This document shows positions 2,938-56,661 of a stretch of 64,000 nucleotides of DNA, in pieces. Under the pieces are notes generated by a model. It was not told the origin of the DNA, made no database searches, and worked only from the letters and a program-made list of their open reading frames with translations. Position 1 is the stretch's first letter, and each line of letters starts with the position of its first letter. A program made the position numbers and the translations under genes. Source of the DNA: Gemmatimonadaceae bacterium (GTDB taxonomy: Bacteria > Gemmatimonadota > Gemmatimonadetes > Gemmatimonadales > Gemmatimonadaceae); assembly GCA_025934775.1 (NCBI GenBank), contig JAICWO010000003.1:124001-188000 (forward strand), given 5' to 3'.

Positions 2938-3357
2938 ATGAACGAGCACCTGCGCGACCGCATTCTCAGAAAACTGGAGACATTGCCGGATGAGCGTGGG
3001 TACCAAGTGCTCGACTTCGTGGAGTTTCTCGAGTCGCGGTACGCCGAACGGCAGGCGCCCGGCGCCAATGCGTTCACGCGCTTTACCGAAGCGATCGAGG
3101 ACAAGCTGCGCGCCGGCAAGGTCTCGGCGAGCGCGATCGCCGAGACGGTTGGATTCATGAATCGTGCGGCCGGCGTGCTCAACAGCGCGCTCGAGAGCGG
3201 CAAGAGCATGGCGAATGAGATCGTGAGCACCGCGCGCAACGCGACGGGTGGCGCGACGAGCCAGCCCGCTCCGCCGCAGAAGACGTCAAGCCAGGACTCC
3301 GCTTCGTCACCGGCGCACGAGGTGCAGGATCCTGGCGGTCCGGGAGAAAAGCTCTGA
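2938..3357 (+). CDS. Small protein with a DUF2281-like N-terminus
   Basis: 139 aa with a GGAGAG ribosome site before ATG 2938. Residues ~5-40 (ILRKLETLPDERGYQVLDFV) resemble the DUF2281 segment found in some antitoxin-like proteins, but no toxin gene is adjacent. The middle is amphipathic helix and the C-terminus is a Ser/Pro/Gln-rich disordered tail. The stop TGA overlaps the ATG of the DUF1232 gene (TGATG), so the two are co-translated. Function unknown; a scaffold or regulatory partner of the membrane protein that follows is possible. Confidence 0.7.
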   Translation: MNEHLRDRILRKLETLPDERGYQVLDFVEFLESRYAERQAPGANAFTRFTEAIEDKLRAGKVSASAIAETVGFMNRAAGVLNSALESGKSMANEIVSTARNATGGATSQPAPPQKTSSQDSASSPAHEVQDPGGPGEKL

Positions 3358-3812
3358 TGGCTACTCGTACGCACGCCGCCGGCGCCCGCCGCGCGCGAAC
3401 GATCGACGACAGTCCGGCGCGCGGGAAGCCGCGCACCGGAGCACGGCGCACGGTGCTCTACTACATCCGCCAACTCCCAAGCCATCTGCGGCTGCTCGGC
3501 GGGCTGATCACCGATCGGCGCGTCTCGGTCGTGGACAAGCTGCTGGTCGCGGGCGCGATCGCCTACATCGTGACGCCAATCGATCTCATTCCCGATTTCA
3601 TTCCGTTCTTCGGGGAGATCGACGACCTGTACATCCTGGTGCTCGCACTGCAACGGCTCATCTCGAACGCCGGTCGCGTGGTGTTGCTCGATCACTGGGC
3701 GGGAGATCCGGCCGATCTGGCCGACATCAACCTGCGCGGCGCGCTGACGGCGGCGGCGTTCTTTCTGCCGAAGCGGATTCGGCGGAGACTGCGGGTGATC
3801 GGGAAGGCCTGA
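3357..3812 (+). CDS. DUF1232 (YkvA-type) membrane protein
   Basis: 151 aa. A basic N-terminus is followed by a hydrophobic core around VDKLLVAGAIAYIVTPIDLI and PDFIPFFGEIDDLYILVLAL, the hallmark of DUF1232/YkvA proteins. These are small, probably membrane-associated proteins of unknown function that often travel with envelope genes. The start overlaps the preceding stop by one base. The gene ends just before the long inverted-repeat element at 3819. Confidence 0.85.
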   Translation: MATRTHAAGARRARTIDDSPARGKPRTGARRTVLYYIRQLPSHLRLLGGLITDRRVSVVDKLLVAGAIAYIVTPIDLIPDFIPFFGEIDDLYILVLALQRLISNAGRVVLLDHWAGDPADLADINLRGALTAAAFFLPKRIRRRLRVIGKA

Positions 3813-3818
3813 GCCTCG

Positions 3819-5725
<1,907 letters not shown>

Positions 5726-6340: not shown

Positions 6341-7652
6341 TCCGATCCGCCGCGCGCCGCGTCGCCCGCGATCATCGGAGTACACGATCGCTCGCCTGCG
6401 GCTCTGGGACGATGAGGTCGGTGCGGTCGTCGAGAATCGCCAAGGACAGATCACCTTCGAGTACGCGGAGGCGTTCAGGCGCTCCGGTCTCGAGATCTCG
6501 CCGATCCATCTTCCGCTGTCGCGTGCGGGACCGATCGAATTTCCCGAGTTGCAGCGCGTCGCCTCGTTCGCCGGCCTGCCTGGAGCGCTCGCGGATTGTC
6601 TTCCGGACGCGTTCGGCAATGCGGTCATCGCGCGGTTCTTCGAACGGCGCGGAACGCCCGGCGCGGCGCTGAGCCCCGTCCAAAAACTGCTCTACATCGG
6701 CAGGCGCGCGATGGGAGCGCTGGAATTCAGCCCGCCGATCGACGGAACGAACAGCGCCGCCGAGGACGCGCTCAAGATCGCGCAGTTGGTGCGCGAAGCG
6801 CGGCGCGTGATCGAGGGCGATACCTCGGTCGCCGTTCCGGAGATGATGCAGGTGGGCGCCTCGGCCGGCGGCGCGCGCGCCAAGGCGCTGATCTTGTGGA
6901 ACCAGGCCGCCGGCCGCGTGCGCTCGGCGTTCGCGCCGCGCGGAGCGGGAGACGAACACTGGTTGATCAAGTTCGACGGCGTGAGCGGCGGAGCAGGCGG
7001 TCACGTCATGGTGAAGGACTTTCGGCCCGGGCCGTTTGGGCGCATCGAGTACGCATACTCGCAAATGGCGCGTGCCGCGGGACTCGACGTGTCGGATACG
7101 TACGTGCTGCGCGAACGCGATTTCGCGCACTTCATGACCAAGCGTTTCGACCGCGAGGCGGACACGCGCGTGCACATGCACAGTCTTGGCGGACTGCAGC
7201 ACGCCGACTATAACGTGCGCCAGGTGCTCTCCTACGAAGATTATTTTCGCACCATTCGCCGGCTCGGCATGGGACAGCCCGCGGTCGATCAGGCGTTCCG
7301 CCGCATGGTCTTCAACATCGCGGCGAGAAATCAGGACGATCACGTGAAGAATCTTGCGTTCCTCATGGGCCGCGATGGCGCGTGGCGGCTCGCACCGGCG
7401 TTCGACGTGACGTGGGCGTACGGCGGGAATTGGTCGCGAACGCATCAGATGACCGCGCGCGGCAAGGACGACGATTTCACGCGAGACGATCTGCTGGCCG
7501 TTGGGCGGGCGTTCGACGTTGCGAAGGACGGTGCGGCGATTTTGGAGGAGGTCGAATCCGCGCTCGGGTTATGGGAGCCAGAGGCGAAAGAAGTGGATCT
7601 CACACGGAATTGGATCACGACCGTTCGCTCGAGCTTCCGGCACTTCGCCTGA
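6333..7652 (+). CDS. hipA: HipA-family serine/threonine kinase toxin
   Basis: 439 aa, the usual HipA length; ATG 6333 overlaps the end of hipB. An N-terminal couple_hipA domain (~18-115) precedes a HipA_C kinase domain. VGASAGGARAKAL (S177, K184) matches the Gly-rich autophosphorylation loop, LIKFDG holds the ATP-binding Lys (K213), and NQDDHVKN (D335, N340) is the catalytic loop. APAFDV (D358) is the metal-binding Asp. All key kinase residues are present, so the toxin should be active. Known HipA proteins phosphorylate aminoacyl-tRNA synthetases such as GltX and cause growth arrest and persistence; the target here is unknown. Confidence 0.9.
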   Translation: MSDPIRRAPRRPRSSEYTIARLRLWDDEVGAVVENRQGQITFEYAEAFRRSGLEISPIHLPLSRAGPIEFPELQRVASFAGLPGALADCLPDAFGNAVIARFFERRGTPGAALSPVQKLLYIGRRAMGALEFSPPIDGTNSAAEDALKIAQLVREARRVIEGDTSVAVPEMMQVGASAGGARAKALILWNQAAGRVRSAFAPRGAGDEHWLIKFDGVSGGAGGHVMVKDFRPGPFGRIEYAYSQMARAAGLDVSDTYVLRERDFAHFMTKRFDREADTRVHMHSLGGLQHADYNVRQVLSYEDYFRTIRRLGMGQPAVDQAFRRMVFNIAARNQDDHVKNLAFLMGRDGAWRLAPAFDVTWAYGGNWSRTHQMTARGKDDDFTRDDLLAVGRAFDVAKDGAAILEEVESALGLWEPEAKEVDLTRNWITTVRSSFRHFA

Positions 7653-10615: not shown

Positions 10616-11725
10616 ATGGCTACTAATCCACTGCAGGCTCGCGTGGCACAGGCGCTGAGCCGAATTCCATACCCGCGCACCGGCGACAACCTCGTCGCGA
10701 GCCAGGCCGTGCGCGACGTCGCGACGACGACCGCCGGCAAGGTGCGCCTCACGCTGCTCCTCGCCGCCGGCGACGATCCGGCGCTCGCCCGGACCGTGCG
10801 CCAGATATTAGAGAACGTTGAAGGCGTCACCGAGGTCACGGTCGACGTGGCGGACGCGGCAGCCTTCGCGGCCAACCGCAAGCCGGCCGGCCGCGCGCTG
10901 CCCGTGATGGACGACCGGCCGGCGCAACCGCGCGTCCCCGCGCCCACCCCCAAGCAGTACCCCAACCTTGGCAAGATCATCGCCGTGTCGAGCGGCAAGG
11001 GCGGCGTCGGCAAGTCCACCGTCTCGGTGAATCTCGCCGTCGCGCTCGCGCAGCGCGGCGCGCGCGTCGGCCTCATGGACGCCGATATTTATGGACCGAA
11101 TATCCCCACGATGATGGGGCTCGCCGAGCCGCCGATGGTCATCAACGAGCGGATCGTGCCGCTCGAGGCGCACGGCGTGAAGGTGATGAGCCTGGGCGTG
11201 CTGATCGATCGCGATCAGCCGGCGATCTGGCGCGGTCCCATCATCATGAAAATCATCACGCAGTTCCTCGGCGACGTGGCGTGGGGGCAGCTCGACTACT
11301 TCATCGTCGATCTGCCGCCCGGCACCGGCGACGCGCAGCTCACGCTCGTGCAATCGGCCGAGGTGTCCGGCGCGGTGATCGTGACGACGCCGCAGGAGGT
11401 CTCCGTCGGCGACGCGCTCCGCGGCGCGAAGATGTTCGAGCGCGTCGACGTGCGCGTGCTCGGCATCGTGGAGAACATGAGTTGGTTCGAGTGTCCGCAC
11501 TGCGGCAAGCCGTCGTCGATCTTCGGATCGGGCGGCGGCGAACGGCTCGCGCGCGAGCTCGAGCTGCCATTGCTCGGTCAGATTCCGCTCTACCCGCCGG
11601 TCATGCAGGGCGGCGACACGGGCGCGCCGATCGTCGTGACCGATCCGCAGTCGTCGGCCGCGCGCGCGCTCGCCGCGACGGCGGAACGGATCGCGGAGCG
11701 CGCCGGAGCGACGGCGGCCCGGTAG
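10616..11725 (+). CDS. Mrp/ApbC-type iron-sulfur carrier ATPase
   Basis: 369 aa. An N-terminal DUF59/MIP18-like domain (~5-85) precedes a P-loop ATPase with the deviant Walker A SSGKGGVGKSTVSVNLA (~124-140), MDADIYGPNIP and IVDLPPGTGDAQLT. CPHCGK near 295 is the CxxC that bridges an Fe-S cluster at the dimer interface. It delivers Fe-S clusters to cytosolic apoproteins. ATG 10616 follows the phosphoesterase by 31 bp, so co-transcription is likely. Confidence 0.93.
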   Translation: MATNPLQARVAQALSRIPYPRTGDNLVASQAVRDVATTTAGKVRLTLLLAAGDDPALARTVRQILENVEGVTEVTVDVADAAAFAANRKPAGRALPVMDDRPAQPRVPAPTPKQYPNLGKIIAVSSGKGGVGKSTVSVNLAVALAQRGARVGLMDADIYGPNIPTMMGLAEPPMVINERIVPLEAHGVKVMSLGVLIDRDQPAIWRGPIIMKIITQFLGDVAWGQLDYFIVDLPPGTGDAQLTLVQSAEVSGAVIVTTPQEVSVGDALRGAKMFERVDVRVLGIVENMSWFECPHCGKPSSIFGSGGGERLARELELPLLGQIPLYPPVMQGGDTGAPIVVTDPQSSAARALAATAERIAERAGATAAR

Positions 11726-11737
11726 TCCACCGCGCGC

Positions 11738-13147
11738 GTGCTCGATCCCGCTCCGGCTGCGGCACCGCAGCTTCCGGTCGAGCCGCACGAGGGCCTCGCG
11801 CCCGTCGCGGTCAGCGATGCGCGCGAAGCCGCGCATCTCGTCACCGACTCGCTGCGACGCACGATCCTGAAGATTGCGCTGCCGGCGGTCGCGTCGTCGC
11901 TCCTGATGACACTTTTCTCATCGGTCGACGCGTTCTGGGTGGGCACGCGGATCGGCGCGTCGGGTCTCGCGGCGGTCTCCACGTCGCTGTTCTGGATCTG
12001 GATGATCGTCTCGCTCGCCGAGATGATCGGCGTGGGACTCACCGCGGTCGCGGCGCGACGCTACGGCGAGCGCCGGCCGGATGACGCGGCGCGCATCGCC
12101 GGCGACACGCTCGTCTTCGGTGTGGTGCTCGGCGCCATCGTCGGCGCGATCGGCGCGACGCACATCGACGCGCTCTTTCGCCTGATGGAGACACCGCCCG
12201 ACGTGAGCGCGCTCGGCGCCACGTACCTGCGGACGTACCTGCTCGGCACACCGCTCATCTACGGCTTCTTCGCGGTCGACGCGTCGTTCCGCGCGTCGGG
12301 CGACACGAAGACGCCCTTCGTGCTTCTGCTCACGTCGGTCGGGCTGACGCTGTTTCTCGATCCGGCGCTGATGCTCGGATGGGCGGGACTGCCGCGGCTC
12401 GGCATCGCCGGCGCGGCGATCGCGACGATCGGCACCCGCGGCGCCGCGTTCATTCTCGGCGTCGGCATCGCCGTCCGCCGCAAGCTGCTGCGTATGGGTC
12501 GAATTCAGCTCGCGTCGCTCCAGGCGATCTGCCGCGTCGGACTCCCGACCGCGATCACCGGAAGCACGTTCAGCCTGATTTACATTTTTCTCACGAGGAT
12601 CACGACGCACTTCGGCACGCCGGCGCTCGCCGCGCTCGGCATCGGCCATCGCGTGGAGAGCTGGCTGTTCATGATCGGCGTGGGCTTCGGCGCGGCGACG
12701 GCGGCGATCGTCGGACAGAACCTTGGCGCCGGACGCCCCGATCGCGCGGCGCGCGCCGGTTGGATGGCCACCGGTTTCTGCACACTGCTCGGCGTCGGCG
12801 CGTTCGTGCTCGAGCTGACGATCCCGCGGCAGTTCGCGTCGTTCTTCACCAACGACGCGGCGGTGATCGCCGAAGCGGTCAAGTATCTGCGCGTCGCCTC
12901 GTTCTCGCAGCTCGCGGTGTGCGCCGAGATCGTGCTCGAGGGCGCGTTGGGCGGAGCGGGGCACACGGTGCCGCCCATGCTGTCGTCGACCGCGCTCACG
13001 GCATCGCGCATTCCGCTCGCGGCGTGGGCGGCATCGCGGTGGGGCAGCATCGGGATCTGGTGGGTCATCTCGCTCACGGCGATGGGGCGCGGCATCGCGA
13101 TGTGCGCCCTCTGGCGCGCCGGTGGCTGGAAGCGCAGATCAGTGTGA
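11738..13147 (+). CDS. MATE-family efflux transporter
   Basis: 469 aa with 12 predicted membrane helices in two homologous halves. LRRTILKIALPAVASSLLM starts the first half, LGTPLIYGFFAVDASFRASG and GNLGAG-like NLGAGRPDRAARAG are typical of MATE/NorM proteins. These export organic cations or drugs using Na or H gradients. The GTG start lies 12 bp after the mrp-type gene. The 3' end is separated by 2 bp from the SAM-hydrolase gene, so three or four genes form one unit. Confidence 0.92.
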   Translation: MLDPAPAAAPQLPVEPHEGLAPVAVSDAREAAHLVTDSLRRTILKIALPAVASSLLMTLFSSVDAFWVGTRIGASGLAAVSTSLFWIWMIVSLAEMIGVGLTAVAARRYGERRPDDAARIAGDTLVFGVVLGAIVGAIGATHIDALFRLMETPPDVSALGATYLRTYLLGTPLIYGFFAVDASFRASGDTKTPFVLLLTSVGLTLFLDPALMLGWAGLPRLGIAGAAIATIGTRGAAFILGVGIAVRRKLLRMGRIQLASLQAICRVGLPTAITGSTFSLIYIFLTRITTHFGTPALAALGIGHRVESWLFMIGVGFGAATAAIVGQNLGAGRPDRAARAGWMATGFCTLLGVGAFVLELTIPRQFASFFTNDAAVIAEAVKYLRVASFSQLAVCAEIVLEGALGGAGHTVPPMLSSTALTASRIPLAAWAASRWGSIGIWWVISLTAMGRGIAMCALWRAGGWKRRSV

Positions 13148-37886: not shown

Positions 37887-38917
37887 TACACCGCGCGCCA
37901 CCGCTCGACGCGATCGAGGACGTCGCGCACGGTGATGCGCGGCATGCGATCGGCGCGGTTCTCCATGCTGATTGGATATTCCTCGCCTGGCTCACCGTAC
38001 GCATCCACGATGAGATCGTGAAAGTTGCGATACGGGCCGGTGCGCTTGGGGTTGGTGTAGCCGAGGAGGCTGACGACCGGGCGATCGAGCGCGACGCTCA
38101 TGTGCAGCGGGCCCGTGTCGGGCGAGAGCACGAGCGCGGAGCCATCGAGGATGCTCACGAGCTTGCGGAGTCCGGAGCCGAGGGCGGAGCGCGGCCGATG
38201 ATGCGCCTGCTCGAGGATGACTTGCTCGGCGTGCAGCTCGCGCGGCGATCGGCCGCCGACGAGCACCGTCTCGAGTCCAAAGTCGGACCAGAGCGCGTCG
38301 ACGACTTGCGCCCAGCGCTCGGGCAGCCAGTCCTTCTGCGGTTTGCTCGTGGCGACCACGATCGCGGCGCTCGGACGATCGGCTTGCGCGAAGAACTCGC
38401 GCTGCCATGATCGCTCGTCGGCCCACGGTCCCAGATCCCAGACGACGGGTTCGTGCGGGACATTGATGGCCGTGAGGAATTCGAAATACTGATCCTGCAC
38501 GTGCTGCGGCTCGTGCGGCGGGATGCGGTGCGTCGTGAAGAGCCAGTTGAAGTCGCGCGCGCGCGCGCGGTCGAAGCCCAGCTTCACCGGCGATCGCGTG
38601 AACCGCGTCACGATCCCGGCCTTGAAGTAGACCTGGAGGTTGATGACGAGGTCGAACTCGCGTGCGGCGAGCTCGCGCCGAATGTCACGGAATGCGCCCC
38701 ACCCGCTCGCACGATCGAAGAGGAGGATCTCGTCGACGGCCCAGTGTCCGCGCACCAGAGTTGCGGGCCCCGGCTGCAGCACCCACGTGATGTGCACGTC
38801 CGGCGTGTGCCGCTTGAGTGCCGTGAGCACTGGCAGTACGTGCACGGCGTCGCCGACGGCGCTCATCATCACGATGCAGACGCGGCGGAGTGGATTGGGC
38901 AGGGCGCCGTCGATCAT
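37856..38917 (-). CDS. GT9-family glycosyltransferase (heptosyltransferase type)
   Basis: 353 aa. RRVCIVMMSAVGDAVHVLPV at the N-terminus and LVLSPDTGPLHMSVALDRPVVSLLG near residue 255, with GYTNPKRTGPY after it, are the ADP-heptose:LPS heptosyltransferase pattern. It likely adds a core sugar to LPS on the inner face of the inner membrane. ATG 38917 lies 7 nt after a TATCTT hexamer that would act as a -10, suggesting a leaderless mRNA. Divergent from the GT4 gene. Confidence 0.9.
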   Translation of the reverse strand: MIDGALPNPLRRVCIVMMSAVGDAVHVLPVLTALKRHTPDVHITWVLQPGPATLVRGHWAVDEILLFDRASGWGAFRDIRRELAAREFDLVINLQVYFKAGIVTRFTRSPVKLGFDRARARDFNWLFTTHRIPPHEPQHVQDQYFEFLTAINVPHEPVVWDLGPWADERSWQREFFAQADRPSAAIVVATSKPQKDWLPERWAQVVDALWSDFGLETVLVGGRSPRELHAEQVILEQAHHRPRSALGSGLRKLVSILDGSALVLSPDTGPLHMSVALDRPVVSLLGYTNPKRTGPYRNFHDLIVDAYGEPGEEYPISMENRADRMPRITVRDVLDRVERWRAVYQPRVIGPNA

Positions 38918-38982
38918 GTGCCGGAAGATAGAGGATCGGCGGCGGCGACGCGCGGCACTTGCGGCCGACGGCCGGAGCAAGG

Positions 38983-44113: not shown

Positions 44114-46291
44114 ATGCGTCGAATCCTCGCGGTGCCGCGCACCGCGTGTTGGTTATTCGTGTTCGTGTTGCTCGCGCCGTCGCTGGCGCGGACGGCGAGC
44201 GCGCAAACCTGGAACGATCAGCGAACGCTCGCCCTGGTGGACCGGGCGACGGCGCGCCGCGCCGAGCAGCTCGCGGACACCGGCCTCACCGACTATCAGG
44301 CGACCGCGCACGGCTACGTCACGTTCCTGGGGCAGCTCGGCGAAGGCTTTCCGACACCGCCGAAGATCATCAAAGCGGACGAGTTGGAGCTCGAAGTCTA
44401 CTGGCGCGCGCCCAATCTGAGCAAGCAGTTGATCGTCGGGCGGCGCGATACGCTCCTCTTGCCCACGGACATCGCGTACCACCGCGATCACCTGGGCATC
44501 GTCCAGAACAACTTTCCGAACATCATTCGCATCGGGGACGGCGACGAGGTGGCGGACGTGCCGCATCCCCTGTCGCCGGTGGGGCTCCGCGAGTACGACT
44601 TCGCGGTGAGCGACAGCTTCGCGATCGGGCAGGCGTCGCAGCGCATCCGCGTGTACGAGGTGAAGGTCCGGCCGAAGGACGACAAGCAGCCGCGCGTCGT
44701 CGGCGCGCTCTACATCGATCAGTCGGCGGGGCAGGTCGTGCGCATGAACCTGAGCTTCACGCGCGCGGCGTTTCTCGACCAGTCGCTCGAGGAGCTGTCG
44801 GTCGTTCTGGAGAATCGACTCGTCGGCGGACGGTTCTGGCTGCCAAGCCGGCAGGAGATCGAGATTCGACGCACGGGCACGTGGATGGATTTCCCCGCGC
44901 GCGGTATCATTCGCGGCCGATGGGAGATTGGTGATTACAAGTTCAACACGTCGCCCGCGCGGTCGTTGTTCGTTGGGCCAGAGATCGTGCAGGAGCCTCC
45001 CGCGCAGTTGAAGAAGTATCCGTGGACGGGGCAGGTGCTCGATTCTCTCCCGCCGGACGTGCGTGCGGTGACGGACGTCGACGTGCAGCGCGTGCAGGCC
45101 GAGGCGCGCGAGCTGGTGCGCGCGCGAGCGCTCGAGCGCTCGCAGCAGGTGCGGATGTCGGCGCGCAAAGTCTCGGATTTCGTCCACGTGAACCGCGTCG
45201 AAGGGCTGGCGGTCGGCGATGGAGCGGAGAAGCAGATCGGCGACGGCTTTTCGATCGCCGCGCGCGCGCGGTACGGCATCGACGATCGCGACGGGAAGGG
45301 AGCGGTGACGCTCGCGTGGACGCGGCCGTCGGGCGCGGGCGTTCAACTCTTCGCGCTGCGCGATTTTCGCCAGGCGGGCGATATTACAGAACGCTCATCG
45401 GTGGTGAACAGCCTCGCGGCGCAGGAGTTCGGGAGCGACGACACCGATCCGTATCTCGCGCGCGGTGCGGGGGTGGGGATCGATTTTCCGGTGGCCGGAT
45501 CGTGGCGCTGGCGGGTCGAGAGCACCGTGGAACGGCAGGACTCGCTCGCGGTGCACGCGACGCCGGTGACCGGGGCGTTTCTCTCGACGCTGCCGGCGAT
45601 GCCGCGCAATGTCGCGCGTGTCGCACTGTCCGCCTACCGGGCTCCCGGCCTTTGGCTTCTGGGCACGGAGTTGACCGCACGCGCGGAGGTTCGCGCGGGA
45701 CTCGACGTTCGGCCGAGCAGCGCGCAACCGTCCGGCTCGGGACGTACGGATACCTACCGATTCGTGGCGAGCGCCGATATCGAACGGCCATTCGCGAGCG
45801 GGTCGCAGCGCCTCGTGACGGAGACCACGCTCGGCCGGCTGTGGTCGTCGCGAAATTTCGATCCGTCGCAGGAGCTCTTCTACTTCGGCGGTCCCGTCTC
45901 GGCGCCGGGCTATGACTTCCACGCGATCGTCGCGAACATGGCCGCGACCGAGCACGTGGAGTATCAGGTCCCGATGCCGTTTCCGGCATTTTCATTGGGC
46001 CGGTTTGGACGCGTTCCGGCGAGTGGCACGTTCGCGCTGTACGCGCATGCCGTGGCGATCGGCTCGCGCAATCTGCCTGCGCTCGCGCCGCCGCCCGGCA
46101 TCGCGTCGCTCGCGGGCAGCGGAGGGGTCCCCCGCTTCGTCGAATCACCGAGCACGGTATATCCGTCGCTCGGCGCCGCGGTGTTCACGCCATTCCGCCT
46201 CCTCCGATTCGATGTGGCGCGCGGGCTCCGTCAGGGCGGCCGCTGGACGTTCGGCGTCGACGTGAGCCGCGACTTCTGGAGCATTCTCTAA
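44114..46291 (+). CDS. Large exported protein, predicted outer-membrane beta-barrel
   Basis: 725 aa. A signal peptide ends near TASAQ (~30). The N-terminal ~300 residues form a soluble domain (DELELEVYWRAPNLSKQLIV, AVSDSFAIGQASQRIRVYEV). From ~380 alternating hydrophobic strands resemble a BamA/Omp85 or DUF5686-type barrel (FYFGGPVSAPGYDF, VEYQVPMPFPAFSL, WTFGVDVSRDFW). Such proteins insert or translocate surface components, but the exact family is not identified. The gene is divergent from trpE. Confidence 0.7.
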   Translation: MRRILAVPRTACWLFVFVLLAPSLARTASAQTWNDQRTLALVDRATARRAEQLADTGLTDYQATAHGYVTFLGQLGEGFPTPPKIIKADELELEVYWRAPNLSKQLIVGRRDTLLLPTDIAYHRDHLGIVQNNFPNIIRIGDGDEVADVPHPLSPVGLREYDFAVSDSFAIGQASQRIRVYEVKVRPKDDKQPRVVGALYIDQSAGQVVRMNLSFTRAAFLDQSLEELSVVLENRLVGGRFWLPSRQEIEIRRTGTWMDFPARGIIRGRWEIGDYKFNTSPARSLFVGPEIVQEPPAQLKKYPWTGQVLDSLPPDVRAVTDVDVQRVQAEARELVRARALERSQQVRMSARKVSDFVHVNRVEGLAVGDGAEKQIGDGFSIAARARYGIDDRDGKGAVTLAWTRPSGAGVQLFALRDFRQAGDITERSSVVNSLAAQEFGSDDTDPYLARGAGVGIDFPVAGSWRWRVESTVERQDSLAVHATPVTGAFLSTLPAMPRNVARVALSAYRAPGLWLLGTELTARAEVRAGLDVRPSSAQPSGSGRTDTYRFVASADIERPFASGSQRLVTETTLGRLWSSRNFDPSQELFYFGGPVSAPGYDFHAIVANMAATEHVEYQVPMPFPAFSLGRFGRVPASGTFALYAHAVAIGSRNLPALAPPPGIASLAGSGGVPRFVESPSTVYPSLGAAVFTPFRLLRFDVARGLRQGGRWTFGVDVSRDFWSIL

Positions 46292-46371: not shown

Positions 46372-48486
46372 ATGGCCACCCGCGCTCCCGTTCCGCCGCC
46401 GTCCGCCGCGAGCCTCGACACGCTCGCGCGGCGATTTCGCCTGCCGCTCGCCGATCTCTCGACGGCGAGCGCCCACGCGCTCGCGCTGCTCCCCGAACGG
46501 TGGGCGCGCCGATTCAACGTGCTGCCGCTCACCGCGTCGGAGCAGGACCTGCTCGTCGCGACCGCCGATCCGCTCGACGTGGATTGCGAGCGCACGCTCG
46601 GCTTCGCGACCGGCCGTCAGATTCGGCTCGCGCTTGCCGAGGCGGATGACATTGCCCGCGCGATCGACGACGCGTACGGCACGGACCCGGGCCCCCGGGA
46701 CACCGATCCGCTGCTCGAGGTCCAGCACCTCGACCGCGAGGCGGAAGCGGCGCCGCCATCACCGTCCTCGGAAGATGCGTCGTCGTCGATCACCGCCCTC
46801 GTCGACGAGCTGCTCGCCGGAGGCATTGCGGCGCGCGCGAGTGACATTCACATCGAGCCGGAAGAGCAGGGAATCGCGATTCGGCATCGCGTCGACGGCG
46901 TGCTGGCGCACGCGCGCACGCTGCCGCGCTCCGTCGGGCCGGCGCTCGTCTCGCGCATCAAGATCATCTCGGGGCTCGACATCGCGGATCGCCTGCGCCC
47001 GCAGGACGGCCGCGCCCGCGTCGCGATCAATGGCGTCGCGGTGGATCTGCGCGTCTCCACGCTGCCGGCGTCGCATGGCGAGAAAGTCGTCGTGCGCGTG
47101 CTCGACGGACGCTCCACCGTGTCGACGCTCGACGGCATGGGCTTCAACGGCGACGAGCTCGACCGCCTCGAGCGGCTGCTGCAGTCGCGCGAGGGACTCA
47201 TTCTCGTCACGGGCCCGACGGGCTCCGGCAAGACCACCACGCTCTACGCCGCGCTGCGGCGGCTCAAGGAGCGCGGCGTGAACATCGTGACGGTCGAAGA
47301 CCCCATCGAGTATCGCCTGCCTGGCATCGTTCAGGTGCAAGTGAACGAGAAAGCGGGGCTCACCTTCGCGACGGCGCTGCGGTCGATCATGCGTCAGGAT
47401 CCCGACGTGGTGCTCATCGGCGAGATTCGTGACCGCGAGACCGCGGAGATCGCGATCCAGGCGTCGCTTACCGGCCACCTCGTGCTCTCCACCCTGCACA
47501 CGAACGATGCGCCGAGCGCGGTGACGCGATTGATCGACATCGGCGTGGCGAGCTACAAGATCGCGACGGCTGTGAAAGGCGTGCTCGCGCAGCGGCTCGT
47601 GCGGCGGATCTGCTCGGCGTGCTCCGATGCAGCCAGTCAGCGCGAGGGCTGCGCCGAATGCGGCGGCACGGGCTTTCACGGTCGCCTCGCGCTCGTCGAA
47701 GTGTTGATCGCGTCGCCCGAGTTCGAGCGGCGTGTGGCGGCAGGTGAATCGACCGAGCGCATCGCGTCCGCGGCGCGCGACGACGGTATGCGCTCGCTCT
47801 GGCAGAGCGGCATGGTGCACGCGTCGGCCGAGCGCACGACCGTGGAGGAGGTGCTTCGCGTAGCCTCCCCCGACCAGCCGGCGCGCGCGGTCTCCGAAGC
47901 GGCGCCGCTCAGACTCACACACGCCGCCGCGCCGGAGTTTCAGGGCGATGCGTTCATCCTGCGCGACGATCTCGACGCAACGAGCGCGCGGCGCAGGCCG
48001 CGCCGCCGTAGCTTACCCGGCATGACCAAGATCGAGGTCGGCACGGTCGACGTGTTCGTGGTTCATCCGCTCGCCGCGGGATGGCGCGTGCTCGCGCTCC
48101 AGCGCGCGCGCGACACGCGCTGCCCCGGCGCGTGGGAGCCGGTGCACGGGCACATCGAGCCGGGCGAAGAGCCGGAGGATGCGGCAGTGCGCGAAGTGCG
48201 CGAGGAGACCGGGCTCTCGATCGATGCGCTCTACATCGTGCGCGTACAGCCGTTTTATCTGCGCAAGGTGCGCGCGGTGGAGCTGGCGATCGTGTTCGCG
48301 GCGTTCGTCAACGCGCCGGGTGACATCGTGTTGGGCACGGAGCACCAGGCGGCGGAGTGGCTGAGCGTGGACGAGGCGCTGGCGCGGTTCGCGTTTCCGG
48401 CGGAGCGGGCGTCGCTGCGGGAGATCGCGGAGCTGCTGGCGGCGGGCGACGCGGGGCCGGTGGACGACGTGATGAGAGTTTTCTAA
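46372..48486 (+). CDS. GspE/PilB-type ATPase fused to a Nudix hydrolase
   Basis: 704 aa. An N-terminal MshEN-like domain (~10-110) and a secretion/pilus ATPase domain (~135-505) are present: Walker A GPTGSGKTTT (~281), Walker B DPDVVLIGEIRD, a His box and a zinc site CSAC...CAEC. A Pro/Ala/Arg-rich linker (~510-550) leads without a stop into a Nudix domain (~551-704) with GHIEPGEEPEDAAVREVREE and TGL completing the Nudix box. An internal ATG at 48022 could start the Nudix part alone, preceded by TAGCTT but no ribosome site. Type II secretion or type IV pilus assembly, with an unexpected nucleotide hydrolase attached. Confidence 0.85.
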   Translation: MATRAPVPPPSAASLDTLARRFRLPLADLSTASAHALALLPERWARRFNVLPLTASEQDLLVATADPLDVDCERTLGFATGRQIRLALAEADDIARAIDDAYGTDPGPRDTDPLLEVQHLDREAEAAPPSPSSEDASSSITALVDELLAGGIAARASDIHIEPEEQGIAIRHRVDGVLAHARTLPRSVGPALVSRIKIISGLDIADRLRPQDGRARVAINGVAVDLRVSTLPASHGEKVVVRVLDGRSTVSTLDGMGFNGDELDRLERLLQSREGLILVTGPTGSGKTTTLYAALRRLKERGVNIVTVEDPIEYRLPGIVQVQVNEKAGLTFATALRSIMRQDPDVVLIGEIRDRETAEIAIQASLTGHLVLSTLHTNDAPSAVTRLIDIGVASYKIATAVKGVLAQRLVRRICSACSDAASQREGCAECGGTGFHGRLALVEVLIASPEFERRVAAGESTERIASAARDDGMRSLWQSGMVHASAERTTVEEVLRVASPDQPARAVSEAAPLRLTHAAAPEFQGDAFILRDDLDATSARRRPRRRSLPGMTKIEVGTVDVFVVHPLAAGWRVLALQRARDTRCPGAWEPVHGHIEPGEEPEDAAVREVREETGLSIDALYIVRVQPFYLRKVRAVELAIVFAAFVNAPGDIVLGTEHQAAEWLSVDEALARFAFPAERASLREIAELLAAGDAGPVDDVMRVF

Positions 48487-49325
48487 TCCATCCCGCCGCG
48501 CTCGCGCGCGGTCTTGAGGATGTTGTCGGGCGCCGGCGCGTTGGGCTTCACGCGTACGCTCTTGGCCGGAATCCCGACGTACACCTGGTACGGCCGCACG
48601 TCCTTCGTCGCGACCGCCATCGCGCCCACCATGCCCTGTTCGTGCACGTGCACGCCGGCGAGCACCGTCGCGTGATAGGTGATCCGCACGCCGTCCTCCA
48701 GCACCGTGCACGCGTTCGTCACCTCGCGCTGCTCCACGATGCTGTGCGTGTGGCTGTAGATGTTGGCGTAGTCGCTGATCGAGACGTTGTTCCCGAGCTT
48801 GATCCCGCCGCGGTCGTCGAGCAGCACGTGCCGGTGCACGACGACGTTGTCGCCCACGTCCATGTTGTAGCCGAACGAGAATTCCACGTGCTGGAACGCC
48901 TTGAAGTTCTCACCGCAACGTTTGAAGATGTGCGTCGCGAGCAGCCGCCGGAGCTCGACGCCCAGCCAGACGTTCTGCCCGCCCGCGGCGGTCCGGTCGA
49001 ACGAATACCAGAGCCAGAGCAGCGGCTTCACGCGTTGAAAGCGCGCGTCGTCGCAGTCGCCGTAGTACTCGGGCTCGAGGGTGACGTTGCGCGGATCGGT
49101 CGACGCGAGCGCGAGGCGCGTGGCGTGCGGCAGCGTCGCGTCGGCGACGGCGGTCTCCCAGTTGGACGCGTACTCAGGGTATGTCAGCGCGGTCAGCGTG
49201 TCGCGGCAGATCGTCGCACGATCGGCGTTCGGATCGGCGAGCGCGGCGCGGAGCGACTCGAGCCACTCGGTGGCGAGTGAGCGCGTGCCCGGTTCAGCGA
49301 CTTTCTTGAGCGGGAGATACGGCAT
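48483..49325 (-). CDS. Hexapeptide-repeat acyltransferase
   Basis: 280 aa. The C-terminal half is a left-handed beta-helix: MDVGDNVVVHRHVLLDDRGG, IKLGNNVSISDYANIYSHTH and VLAGVHVHEQGMVGAMAVAT, with the closing VGIPAKSVRVKP typical of acetyltransferases. The N-terminal ~110 residues are helical and unusual for the family, so O- or N-acyl transfer to a sugar is likely. Last gene of the lon-engB-lipoprotein run; overlaps the 3' end of the GspE-Nudix gene by 4 bp. Confidence 0.88.
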   Translation of the reverse strand: MPYLPLKKVAEPGTRSLATEWLESLRAALADPNADRATICRDTLTALTYPEYASNWETAVADATLPHATRLALASTDPRNVTLEPEYYGDCDDARFQRVKPLLWLWYSFDRTAAGGQNVWLGVELRRLLATHIFKRCGENFKAFQHVEFSFGYNMDVGDNVVVHRHVLLDDRGGIKLGNNVSISDYANIYSHTHSIVEQREVTNACTVLEDGVRITYHATVLAGVHVHEQGMVGAMAVATKDVRPYQVYVGIPAKSVRVKPNAPAPDNILKTARERGGMD

Positions 49326-55256: not shown

Positions 55257-56498
55257 TCAGCTTCCGATTTCATTCCGGTCCATGAGCCACTTGAAGACCT
55301 TTTCTTCGGTGATGCTCTGCTCGATCTCGCGGAGTCGGCCCGCCTTCTGGAGCGACGCGTAGACCTGCCCCGGATCGGCGCCCCGCTTGCTCGCCACTTC
55401 CGCCACGCGCTCGTCGATGTCCGCCTCCGTGGCCTTCAGCCCCTCGCGCTCGGCGATCGTCTCGATGATCAGATCGCGACGCACCTGCCGCTCGGCGACC
55501 TGACGGAACTCGCCGCGAAACCGCTCACGCTCGTCCTCCGGCACCTGATACGCGCTGATGTAACCATCGATGAGCTGACTGACCCAGCTCGGTGGAACGT
55601 CGAACGCGTTGGCCGCCGCGATCTGATCGACGAGCTGCTGGCGCACGCTGGCGTCGGCTTCGCGGTTCGCGTGCTCCTCGAGGTCCTTGCGCACCGTCGC
55701 CTGGAGCGCGTCGAGCGACTCGAAGTCGCCGACTTCGCGCGCGAACGCGTCGTCGAGCGGCGGAAGCGACTTGCGCTTGACGTCGAGCAGATGCACGCGC
55801 ACCGGCTTCGTCGTGCCGCGCTGCGATTCGTCGGGGAAATCCTCGGGCCAACGTACGGAGCGCTCGGCGGACTCGCCGGGCTTGATCTCCATGATCAGCT
55901 CCTCGACGCCCGGAATCGCCTGGCCGCTGCCCAGCACGAGCGGGTACTCGTGCGGCTCGGGGAACTGCCCCGACTCGTCGGCCGTCGAGAGCTGCACGCG
56001 CACCATGTCGCCCGGCGCCGCCTTGTCTTCGACCGGCGCCCACGCGGCCTTCTGCTCGCGAATCTGCTCGACCTGCTCGCGAACGCTGTCGTCGGTCACC
56101 GGCGCGATATTGCGCGCCACGTGGAAGCCCTCGGTGCGTGCGAGCTGAATTTCCGGACGAACCTCGACGTGCAGCTCGAAGCTGAGCGGCTGGCCTTCCT
56201 CGAACTTGAGGTCGTGGACGTGCGGCTGCGACGCAACTTTGAGCTGCTCGCGGTCGATCACTTCCTGAAACGCCTCCTGCACCAGCGACTCGATCACCTG
56301 TTGGCGAATCGCGTCCTTGAAGCGCTTCTTCACCATGGCCGGCGGTGCTTTGCCCGGACGGAATCCCGGCAGTCGTACGCTCCCGGCGTACCGGCGCGCG
56401 GCCTTGTCTTCGGCGTCGCGCACGGCCTCGACCGGGACGCGCACTTCAATCAGGCGCTCGAGCCCGTCGCTCTTCTTTGGCGTTATCTCGATGTTCAT
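55257..56498 (-). CDS. tig: Trigger factor
   Basis: 413 aa. The ribosome-binding N-terminus contains VRLPGFRPGKAPPAMVKKRF, the FRPGKAP signature; an FKBP-type PPIase domain covers ~150-240 (APGDMVRVQLSTADESGQFP), and the helical C-terminal arm follows. It chaperones nascent chains at the tunnel exit. ATG 56498 is used because an upstream in-frame extension has no conserved sequence. First gene of tig-clpP-clpX. Confidence 0.95.
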   Translation of the reverse strand: MNIEITPKKSDGLERLIEVRVPVEAVRDAEDKAARRYAGSVRLPGFRPGKAPPAMVKKRFKDAIRQQVIESLVQEAFQEVIDREQLKVASQPHVHDLKFEEGQPLSFELHVEVRPEIQLARTEGFHVARNIAPVTDDSVREQVEQIREQKAAWAPVEDKAAPGDMVRVQLSTADESGQFPEPHEYPLVLGSGQAIPGVEELIMEIKPGESAERSVRWPEDFPDESQRGTTKPVRVHLLDVKRKSLPPLDDAFAREVGDFESLDALQATVRKDLEEHANREADASVRQQLVDQIAAANAFDVPPSWVSQLIDGYISAYQVPEDERERFRGEFRQVAERQVRRDLIIETIAEREGLKATEADIDERVAEVASKRGADPGQVYASLQKAGRLREIEQSITEEKVFKWLMDRNEIGS

Positions 56499-56661
56499 TG
56501 GCCGAAAGCTAGTGAGGACCATAGGGAGAAGAAACGGCGCGCCGGGCCATGCGCATCGCCCCCAAAGCGACCACGGATCGATCGTACTATCATGTTTCGG
56601 AACGCCGCTGGCGGTCGCGGGTACAGCCGGGGCCGCCGACCTCATGAACCGAGAGCTTTGC

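What the first reader, a model, noticed from the sequence alone, without database searches (positions are those of the whole stretch)
46372..48486. Secretion/pilus ATPase fused in frame to a Nudix hydrolase
Without any stop codon, a complete GspE/PilB-type ATPase with all nucleotide and zinc motifs runs through a 45-residue Pro/Ala/Arg-rich linker into a complete Nudix domain with an intact Nudix box (residues ~551-704). I know of no established T2SS/T4P ATPase carrying such a domain. It could hydrolyse a nucleotide signal or by-product at the secretion base, or be a recent in-frame gene fusion. The internal ATG 48022 sits 7 nt after TAGCTT, so separate leaderless Nudix production from the same region is also possible.
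Basis: partly seen in the sequence, partly recalled or inferred. Interest (0 to 1): 0.65.

Follow-up and report, generated by a model that had tools for sequence, protein, structure and literature searches.

The report
Pilus-type motor ATPase fused to Nudix
In at least nine genera of one soil-bacterial family, a motor protein of the kind that builds pili or drives secretion carries a nucleotide-cleaving (Nudix) enzyme on its tail, in the place where older relatives carry a phosphorylation-sensing domain; it is a real, inherited and probably repeated gene fusion, not an assembly error.

Summary
Window 46372-48486 is one 704-aa ORF: truncated MshEN, PilB/GspE-type ATPase, about 47 disordered residues, intact Nudix domain. 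It is neither a chance read-through nor confined to this genome. The fused frame was found in 37 genomes from nine genera of one Gemmatimonadota family. Linkers run 51-189 nt, always a multiple of three. Nudix-box and Walker A residues are invariant in the fused proteins, and several members have lost the Nudix start codon. Related families and other genera encode the ancestral arrangement: ATPase plus a C-terminal phospho-receiver (REC), then a stop, then a separate Nudix gene. A sister genus carries a decayed pseudo-receiver, and one member of it is fused on its own account. So the Nudix took the receiver's place by deletion, at least twice. In the window's genus the linker also carries TAnnTT exactly 7 nt before the Nudix ATG, in all six copies. 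Most likely function: a tethered bifunctional protein (motor ATPase plus nucleotide pyrophosphohydrolase). Substrate and any coupling to the motor are unknown. New variant of known kinds.

The parts
46372..48486 (+). Fused ORF, 704 aa: truncated MshEN - T2SSE ATPase - linker - Nudix
   Evidence: same single frame in 37 genomes
46435..46686 (+). MshEN domain, residues 22-105, N-terminal part missing; no canonical c-di-GMP 24-residue motif
   Evidence: Pfam PF05157; motif scan 0 of 90 relatives, motif from PMC5013675
46777..47859 (+). PilB/GspE-type ATPase core, residues 136-496
   Evidence: PF00437 E 2.5e-123; Foldseek best hits PilF/PilB/GspE structures
47212..47238 (+). Walker A GPTGSGKTT, residues 281-289
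   Evidence: 100% conserved in 36 fused proteins
47611..47661 (+). C4 zinc motif, C414/C417 and C427/C430
   Evidence: C414, C427, C430 100%, C417 77%
47881..48021 (+). Disordered linker, residues 504-550; stands where relatives carry the REC domain
   Evidence: pLDDT under 50; REC in relatives at this place
48009..48014 (+). TAGCTT, leaderless -10-like element 7 nt before the Nudix ATG, inside the linker codons
   Evidence: TAnnTT-N7-ATG in 6 of 6 copies of the genus; genome-wide peak at spacings 6-7
48022..48483 (+). Nudix domain, residues 551-704; ATG 48022 is the likely ancestral and still usable start
   Evidence: PF00293; separate orthologous gene in relatives
48148..48216 (+). Nudix box GHIEPGEEPEDAAVREVREETGL
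   Evidence: G, E, RE, EE, G, L invariant in 36 fused proteins

Best explanation
A genuine, inherited gene fusion. The ancestor was a co-oriented gene pair: a PilB/GspE-type ATPase ending in a phospho-receiver (REC) domain, then a separate Nudix hydrolase gene, often overlapping or a few bases apart. In one family the receiver decayed or was deleted and the ATPase frame ran on into the Nudix frame. The product is most likely a bifunctional hexameric motor ATPase that carries catalytically competent Nudix domains on flexible tails. The Nudix part most likely still does its ancestral job, pyrophosphate cleavage of a nucleotide (nearest profiles: dihydroneopterin-triphosphate pyrophosphatase NudB and asymmetric Ap4A hydrolase), now co-produced with and tethered to the motor. 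In the window's genus a leaderless promoter inside the linker would also make free Nudix. Shown: architecture, frame conservation, receiver replacement, motif conservation, conserved -10-like element. Inferred: translation as one chain, activity, substrate, hexamer, transcription from the internal element.
For: Domain calls above cut-off. Thirty-nine fused loci, 37 distinct linkers, 51-189 nt, all multiples of 3. In clades defined by the ATPase tree, not by fusion, 19 of 19 (clade B) and 12 of 13 (genera g1, g2, g20) are fused despite many linker lengths. Linkers show coding periodicity: third-minus-second position GC reached by 0 of 5000 shuffles. Several fused members carry CCG, CCC, GAA, GAT, ACG or GTA where the Nudix start codon was. 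REC-bearing orthologs: none fused. Phospho-acceptor residues are invariant in 36 REC domains. The pseudo-receiver tail of genus g14 folds as a receiver, and G067 inside that genus is fused, with its Nudix nearest to a separate Nudix gene of the same genus. Leaderless element.
Against: No transcript or protein data. Linker length and sequence are not conserved and the linker is predicted disordered, which argues against mechanical coupling. Separate or broken genes occur in five lineages on the fusion side of the tree (genus g14, G019, G020, G091, and the broken G004 copy), so fusion is not essential. No T4P/T2SS genes were identified next to the gene.
Confidence: 0.8

Rival explanations
1. Co-production rather than partnership: the fusion is a neutral by-product of deleting the receiver between two neighbouring genes. 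The frame is kept only because the Nudix domain depends on that ribosome; the domains do not influence one another. (A sub-reading of the best explanation as to function, not as to the fusion itself.)
For: Linker varies freely in length and sequence and is predicted disordered. The window's genus also keeps a start and a -10-like element for free Nudix. In some other-family members the Nudix lies about 2.3 kb away behind three his-type genes.
Against: Fusion arose at least twice and is kept in nine genera; the two genes are neighbours across the order.
Confidence: 0.4
2. Nudix as the new input domain: it senses or removes a nucleotide signal (for example Ap4A-like) at the motor and so took over control of the ATPase from the lost receiver.
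For: It stands exactly where the REC input domain stood; Nudix-type domains act as sensors elsewhere (TRPM2 carries a NUDT9H domain, PMC4974056, abstract). Weak Ap4A hydrolase similarity.
Against: All catalytic residues are kept, unlike a pure sensor; flexible variable linker. No substrate data.
Confidence: 0.25
3. No fused protein: two overlapping transcription units in a GC-rich genome where a stop happens to be missing; Nudix is made only from the leaderless internal start.
For: TAnnTT-N7-ATG in all six copies of the genus, and the genome uses that spacing.
Against: Frame kept through many linker length changes; members without any start codon at the ancestral Nudix start; coding periodicity of linkers.
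Confidence: 0.06
4. Assembly or indel artefact in this genome.
For: None found.
Against: Same fused frame in 37 genomes assembled separately.
Confidence: 0.01

Closest known systems
PilB/PilF/GspE extension ATPases (PF00437; PDB 5oiu, 5tsh, 4pht)
   Same: About 44% identity over the core, all nucleotide motifs, C4 zinc site
   Different: C-terminal Nudix domain; MshEN truncated without c-di-GMP motif; scores under the GspE and PilB equivalog cut-offs; no pilus/secretion gene identified beside it
ATPase-REC proteins of the same order (e.g. L017, L142)
   Same: Orthologous ATPase, Nudix gene downstream
   Different: End in a phospho-receiver with its own stop; the Nudix is a separate gene
NudB dihydroneopterin triphosphate diphosphatase / asymmetric Ap4A hydrolases
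   Same: Nudix box and overall similarity; best NCBIfam (49 bits) and PDB (1kt9, 3u53) matches of the Nudix part
   Different: Below the NudB cut-off of 103 bits; tethered to an ATPase; substrate untested
TRPM2 and other proteins with attached Nudix-type domains
   Same: Nudix-type domain appended to a machine of another kind
   Different: Different machine and kingdom; here the catalytic box is intact; a resemblance from the literature, not tested here

Membership tests
T2SSE / PilB-GspE secretion ATPase | PF00437 above gathering score | tested here: met
   411.9 bits, cut-off 24.9
T2SSE / PilB-GspE secretion ATPase | Walker A, Asp, Walker B and His boxes, C4 zinc site | tested here: met
   Conserved in 36 fused proteins; C417 77%
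GspE (TIGR02533) or PilB (TIGR02538) equivalog | Score over the curated cut-off | tested here: not met
   503 of 630 and 481 of 676 bits
T2SS/T4P operon member | Pilin, platform or other machinery genes next to it | tested here: inconclusive
   Three window neighbours scanned with Pfam: none is a pilus/secretion gene; other loci read only as ORFs
T2SSE / PilB-GspE secretion ATPase | Hexameric ATPase activity | not testable with these tools
   Needs purified protein
Nudix hydrolase | PF00293 above cut-off and complete Nudix box | tested here: met
   69.5 bits, cut-off 21.1; G-E-RE-EE-G-L invariant
NudB (NF006961) | Score over the curated cut-off | tested here: not met
   49.1 of 103 bits
Nudix hydrolase | Pyrophosphohydrolase activity | not testable with these tools
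   Needs assay
MshEN c-di-GMP receptor | Two 24-residue RLGxx...Q motifs (PMC5013675) | tested here: not met
   0 of 90 sequences match the paper's relaxed motif
Leaderless gene (internal Nudix start) | TANNNT with first T about 12-13 nt before the start codon | tested here: met
   TAnnTT-N7-ATG in 6 of 6 copies; genome-wide peak at spacing 6 (43) and 7 (33) against 15.6 expected; rule in PMC3160421
Leaderless gene (internal Nudix start) | Mapped transcription start at the ATG | not testable with these tools
   Needs 5'-end RNA sequencing

The most novel reading that the evidence does not exclude
Convergent input-domain swap: a pilus/secretion motor lost its two-component receiver and repeatedly gained in its place a Nudix enzyme that removes or senses a nucleotide signal at the motor, with a second, free form of the Nudix made from a leaderless promoter hidden in the linker codons.
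Probability: 0.22. Interest if true: 0.75.

Novelty: new variant of a known kind. Interest (0 to 1): 0.52.

Why it matters
Literature searches here found no description of a Nudix domain on a type II secretion/type IV pilus ATPase, nor of a receiver domain on one. The series of receiver, pseudo-receiver, loss and fusion is laid out in living relatives, so it is a tractable case of domain replacement. It points to a nucleotide-linked function at a motor usually discussed through c-di-GMP, whose canonical binding motif is absent here. The embedded leaderless promoter is a clear case of one stretch of DNA serving both as codons and, probably, as a promoter.

Tried and rejected
Assembly artefact: rejected by 37 genomes. 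Chance read-through: rejected; note that '0 of 1408 in-frame stops' is partly by construction, because fused pairs were selected as open, so I rest on clades defined by the ATPase tree, the linker lengths, the lost start codons and the codon periodicity. All fused proteins as one exclusive clade: rejected (AU p 5.6e-6); clade A alone as one clade is not rejected (p 0.089), so the exact number of fusions is open. Pseudo-receiver by sequence: profile comparison gave nothing significant; only the predicted fold shows it. c-di-GMP binding by MshEN: no motif. NudB as a certified identity: below cut-off. TAnnnT-N7-ATG in the window alone: 5 against 2.8 expected, not significant by itself. Family-wide leaderless signal: no peak in other genera of the family.

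Full report
OBSERVATION. The window holds one open frame at 46372-48486, 704 codons, no internal stop. Pfam places MshEN at 22-105, T2SSE at 136-496 and NUDIX at 561-674, all over their gathering scores. AlphaFold on 36 homologues gives well folded N-domain, ATPase and Nudix parts, with residues 504-550 below pLDDT 50. Foldseek's best matches of the model are PilF, PilB and GspE structures at about 44% identity. The Nudix part matches Ap4A hydrolases best in the PDB by sequence and NudB best among NCBI families, below cut-off.

RELATIVES. Searches of genome collections and classification of each locus for ATPase, receiver (REC) and Nudix, with frames and stops, give two main states. In families f2 and f3 of the order, and in many genera of the window's own family, the ATPase continues into a response-regulator receiver (PF00072, E 1.6e-32 in L142) that ends in its own stop. 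Where a Nudix ortholog was found nearby it is a separate gene: overlapping, up to about 150 nt away, or in some members 2.3-2.5 kb downstream. In L020 the three genes in between are aminotransferase, hisB-type and hisH-type genes, with a hisF-type gene after the Nudix. None of the receiver-bearing orthologs is fused. In 37 genomes of nine genera (g1, g2, g5, g7, g10, g11, g14, g20, g30) there is no receiver and the ATPase frame runs into the Nudix.

IS THE FUSION REAL. The 37 distinct linkers are 51 to 189 nt, all divisible by three. Because pairs were called fused only if open and in frame, I judge by clades set by the ATPase tree: clade B is fused in 19 of 19 members with linkers from 81 to 189 nt, and the group of genera g1, g2 and g20 in 12 of 13 with linkers from 51 to 153 nt. 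Frame kept through so many length changes is not expected if the frame did not matter. In the 13 fused loci first examined, the linkers carry the codon-position GC pattern of coding DNA (GC 0.76/0.59/0.75; 0 of 5000 within-codon shuffles reach the third-minus-second difference). In several members the codon where the Nudix started is now CCG, CCC, GAA, GAT, ACG or GTA, so there the ancestral start is gone. The Nudix-box signature residues and Walker A are invariant in 36 fused proteins.

HOW IT AROSE. Rooted on f2/f3, the tree needs one change for loss of a sequence-recognisable receiver (support 88) and five for fusion. Genus g14, which lies inside the fused side, mostly has separate genes and, in six of its members, a 128-146 residue tail in the receiver's place. 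Sequence profiles do not recognise that tail, but its predicted structure (pLDDT 86.6) is a five-stranded receiver fold: all but one of the best 50 Foldseek rows and all but one of the best 50 VIA-align rows (Z up to 13.0) are response regulators, CheY-like proteins or complexes that contain them. It lacks the acidic pair, phospho-acceptor aspartate and lysine that are invariant in 36 true receivers of this protein family. One g14 genome, G067, has no such tail and is fused (108-nt linker). Its ATPase sits within g14 and its Nudix is nearest to a separate g14 Nudix. So fusion most likely happened at least twice. How many more times depends on weakly supported branches. The order of events (receiver decays, receiver is deleted, ATPase runs into the next gene) is inferred.

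THE INTERNAL START. In the window's genus all six copies (five genomes, plus an intact 3' copy in G004) have TAGCTT, TAACTT, TAGCTT, TAGGTT, TAGGTT or TAGTTT exactly 7 nt before the Nudix ATG. The first T is a wobble base of codons for different amino acids (CGT, CGT, CAT, TCT, GGT, GGT), whereas T makes up 13% of wobble bases in these linkers and 9% in the ATPase. So the conservation looks like conservation of DNA rather than of protein. In 464 kb of the own genome TAnnnT before ATG peaks at spacings 6 (43) and 7 (33) against 15.6 expected, with no such peak before GTG or CTG. This matches the published rule for leaderless genes, TANNNT about 12 bp before the start (PMC3160421). In the window the same N7 arrangement occurs at 56496 (the start of trigger factor, by reading its ORF) and 38915 (probable start of a glycosyltransferase-like gene).

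HOW IT MOST LIKELY WORKS. The ATPase keeps every nucleotide motif, so it should be a working PilB/GspE-class hexamer (inference from the family). Neither the GspE nor the PilB equivalog cut-off is reached. The own genome has four other ATPases of comparable T2SSE score, and none of the three window neighbours scanned is a pilus or secretion gene, so which filament or secretion system it serves is unknown. The MshEN c-di-GMP motif of PMC5013675 is absent in all 90 relatives tested. Six Nudix domains would hang from such a ring on flexible tails (inference). Free variation of the linker speaks against mechanical coupling and for tethering or plain co-production. Catalytic conservation speaks for an active enzyme. 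I put most weight on a bifunctional tethered protein whose Nudix keeps its ancestral nucleotide pyrophosphatase role.

COMPARISON AND NOVELTY. Both halves are known kinds and the combination is the news. Literature searches for Nudix with PilB or type IV pilus, and for receiver domains with PilB/GspE, returned nothing on such architectures; the library is limited to open-licence papers. In the phylum-wide sample no match outside the window's family covers the Nudix in one frame.

Noticed in passing
L118 (G004:C43:136500-152500), 2941-4602, 6774-7343, 10835-12007: In a same-genus genome the fused gene is broken: a full ATPase with a decayed Nudix, then a partial ATPase copy, then a partial ATPase fused to an intact Nudix, with unrelated ORFs (a small HTH-like protein, a putative secreted protease-like protein) between. 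Looks like repeated partial duplication or insertion.
   Followed up: partly
L017, L142 and about 35 other loci: PilB/GspE-type ATPases with a C-terminal phospho-receiver domain are widespread in this order; no paper describing them was found.
   Followed up: partly
L020 7131-10664: In some relatives the Nudix gene sits among histidine-biosynthesis-type genes (aminotransferase, hisB-type, hisH-type before it, hisF-type after it), downstream of the ATPase-REC gene.
   Followed up: partly
window 44114-46291: 725-aa protein with an apparent signal peptide, weakly DUF5686-like (below cut-off), just upstream of the ATPase; a protein of similar size stands upstream in most relatives.
   Followed up: partly
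window 56496-56511 and 38915-38930, minus strand: TAGCTT-N7-ATG at the start of trigger factor and TATCTT-N7-ATG at a glycosyltransferase-like gene: probable leaderless starts.
   Followed up: partly
L195 (G091) and L187 (G195): Two relatives carry an in-frame stop: in L195 between ATPase and Nudix (secondary or original separation), in L187 early in the ATPase (possible pseudogene or sequence error).
   Followed up: no
G000 whole genome: Twelve T2SSE-family ATPases over the cut-off in one genome, five of them matching the whole profile (GspE/PilB type).
   Followed up: no
window 48483-49325, minus strand: Convergent gene whose end overlaps the stop of the fused ORF by 4 nt; reads like a hexapeptide-repeat acetyltransferase but has no Pfam match.
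   Followed up: no
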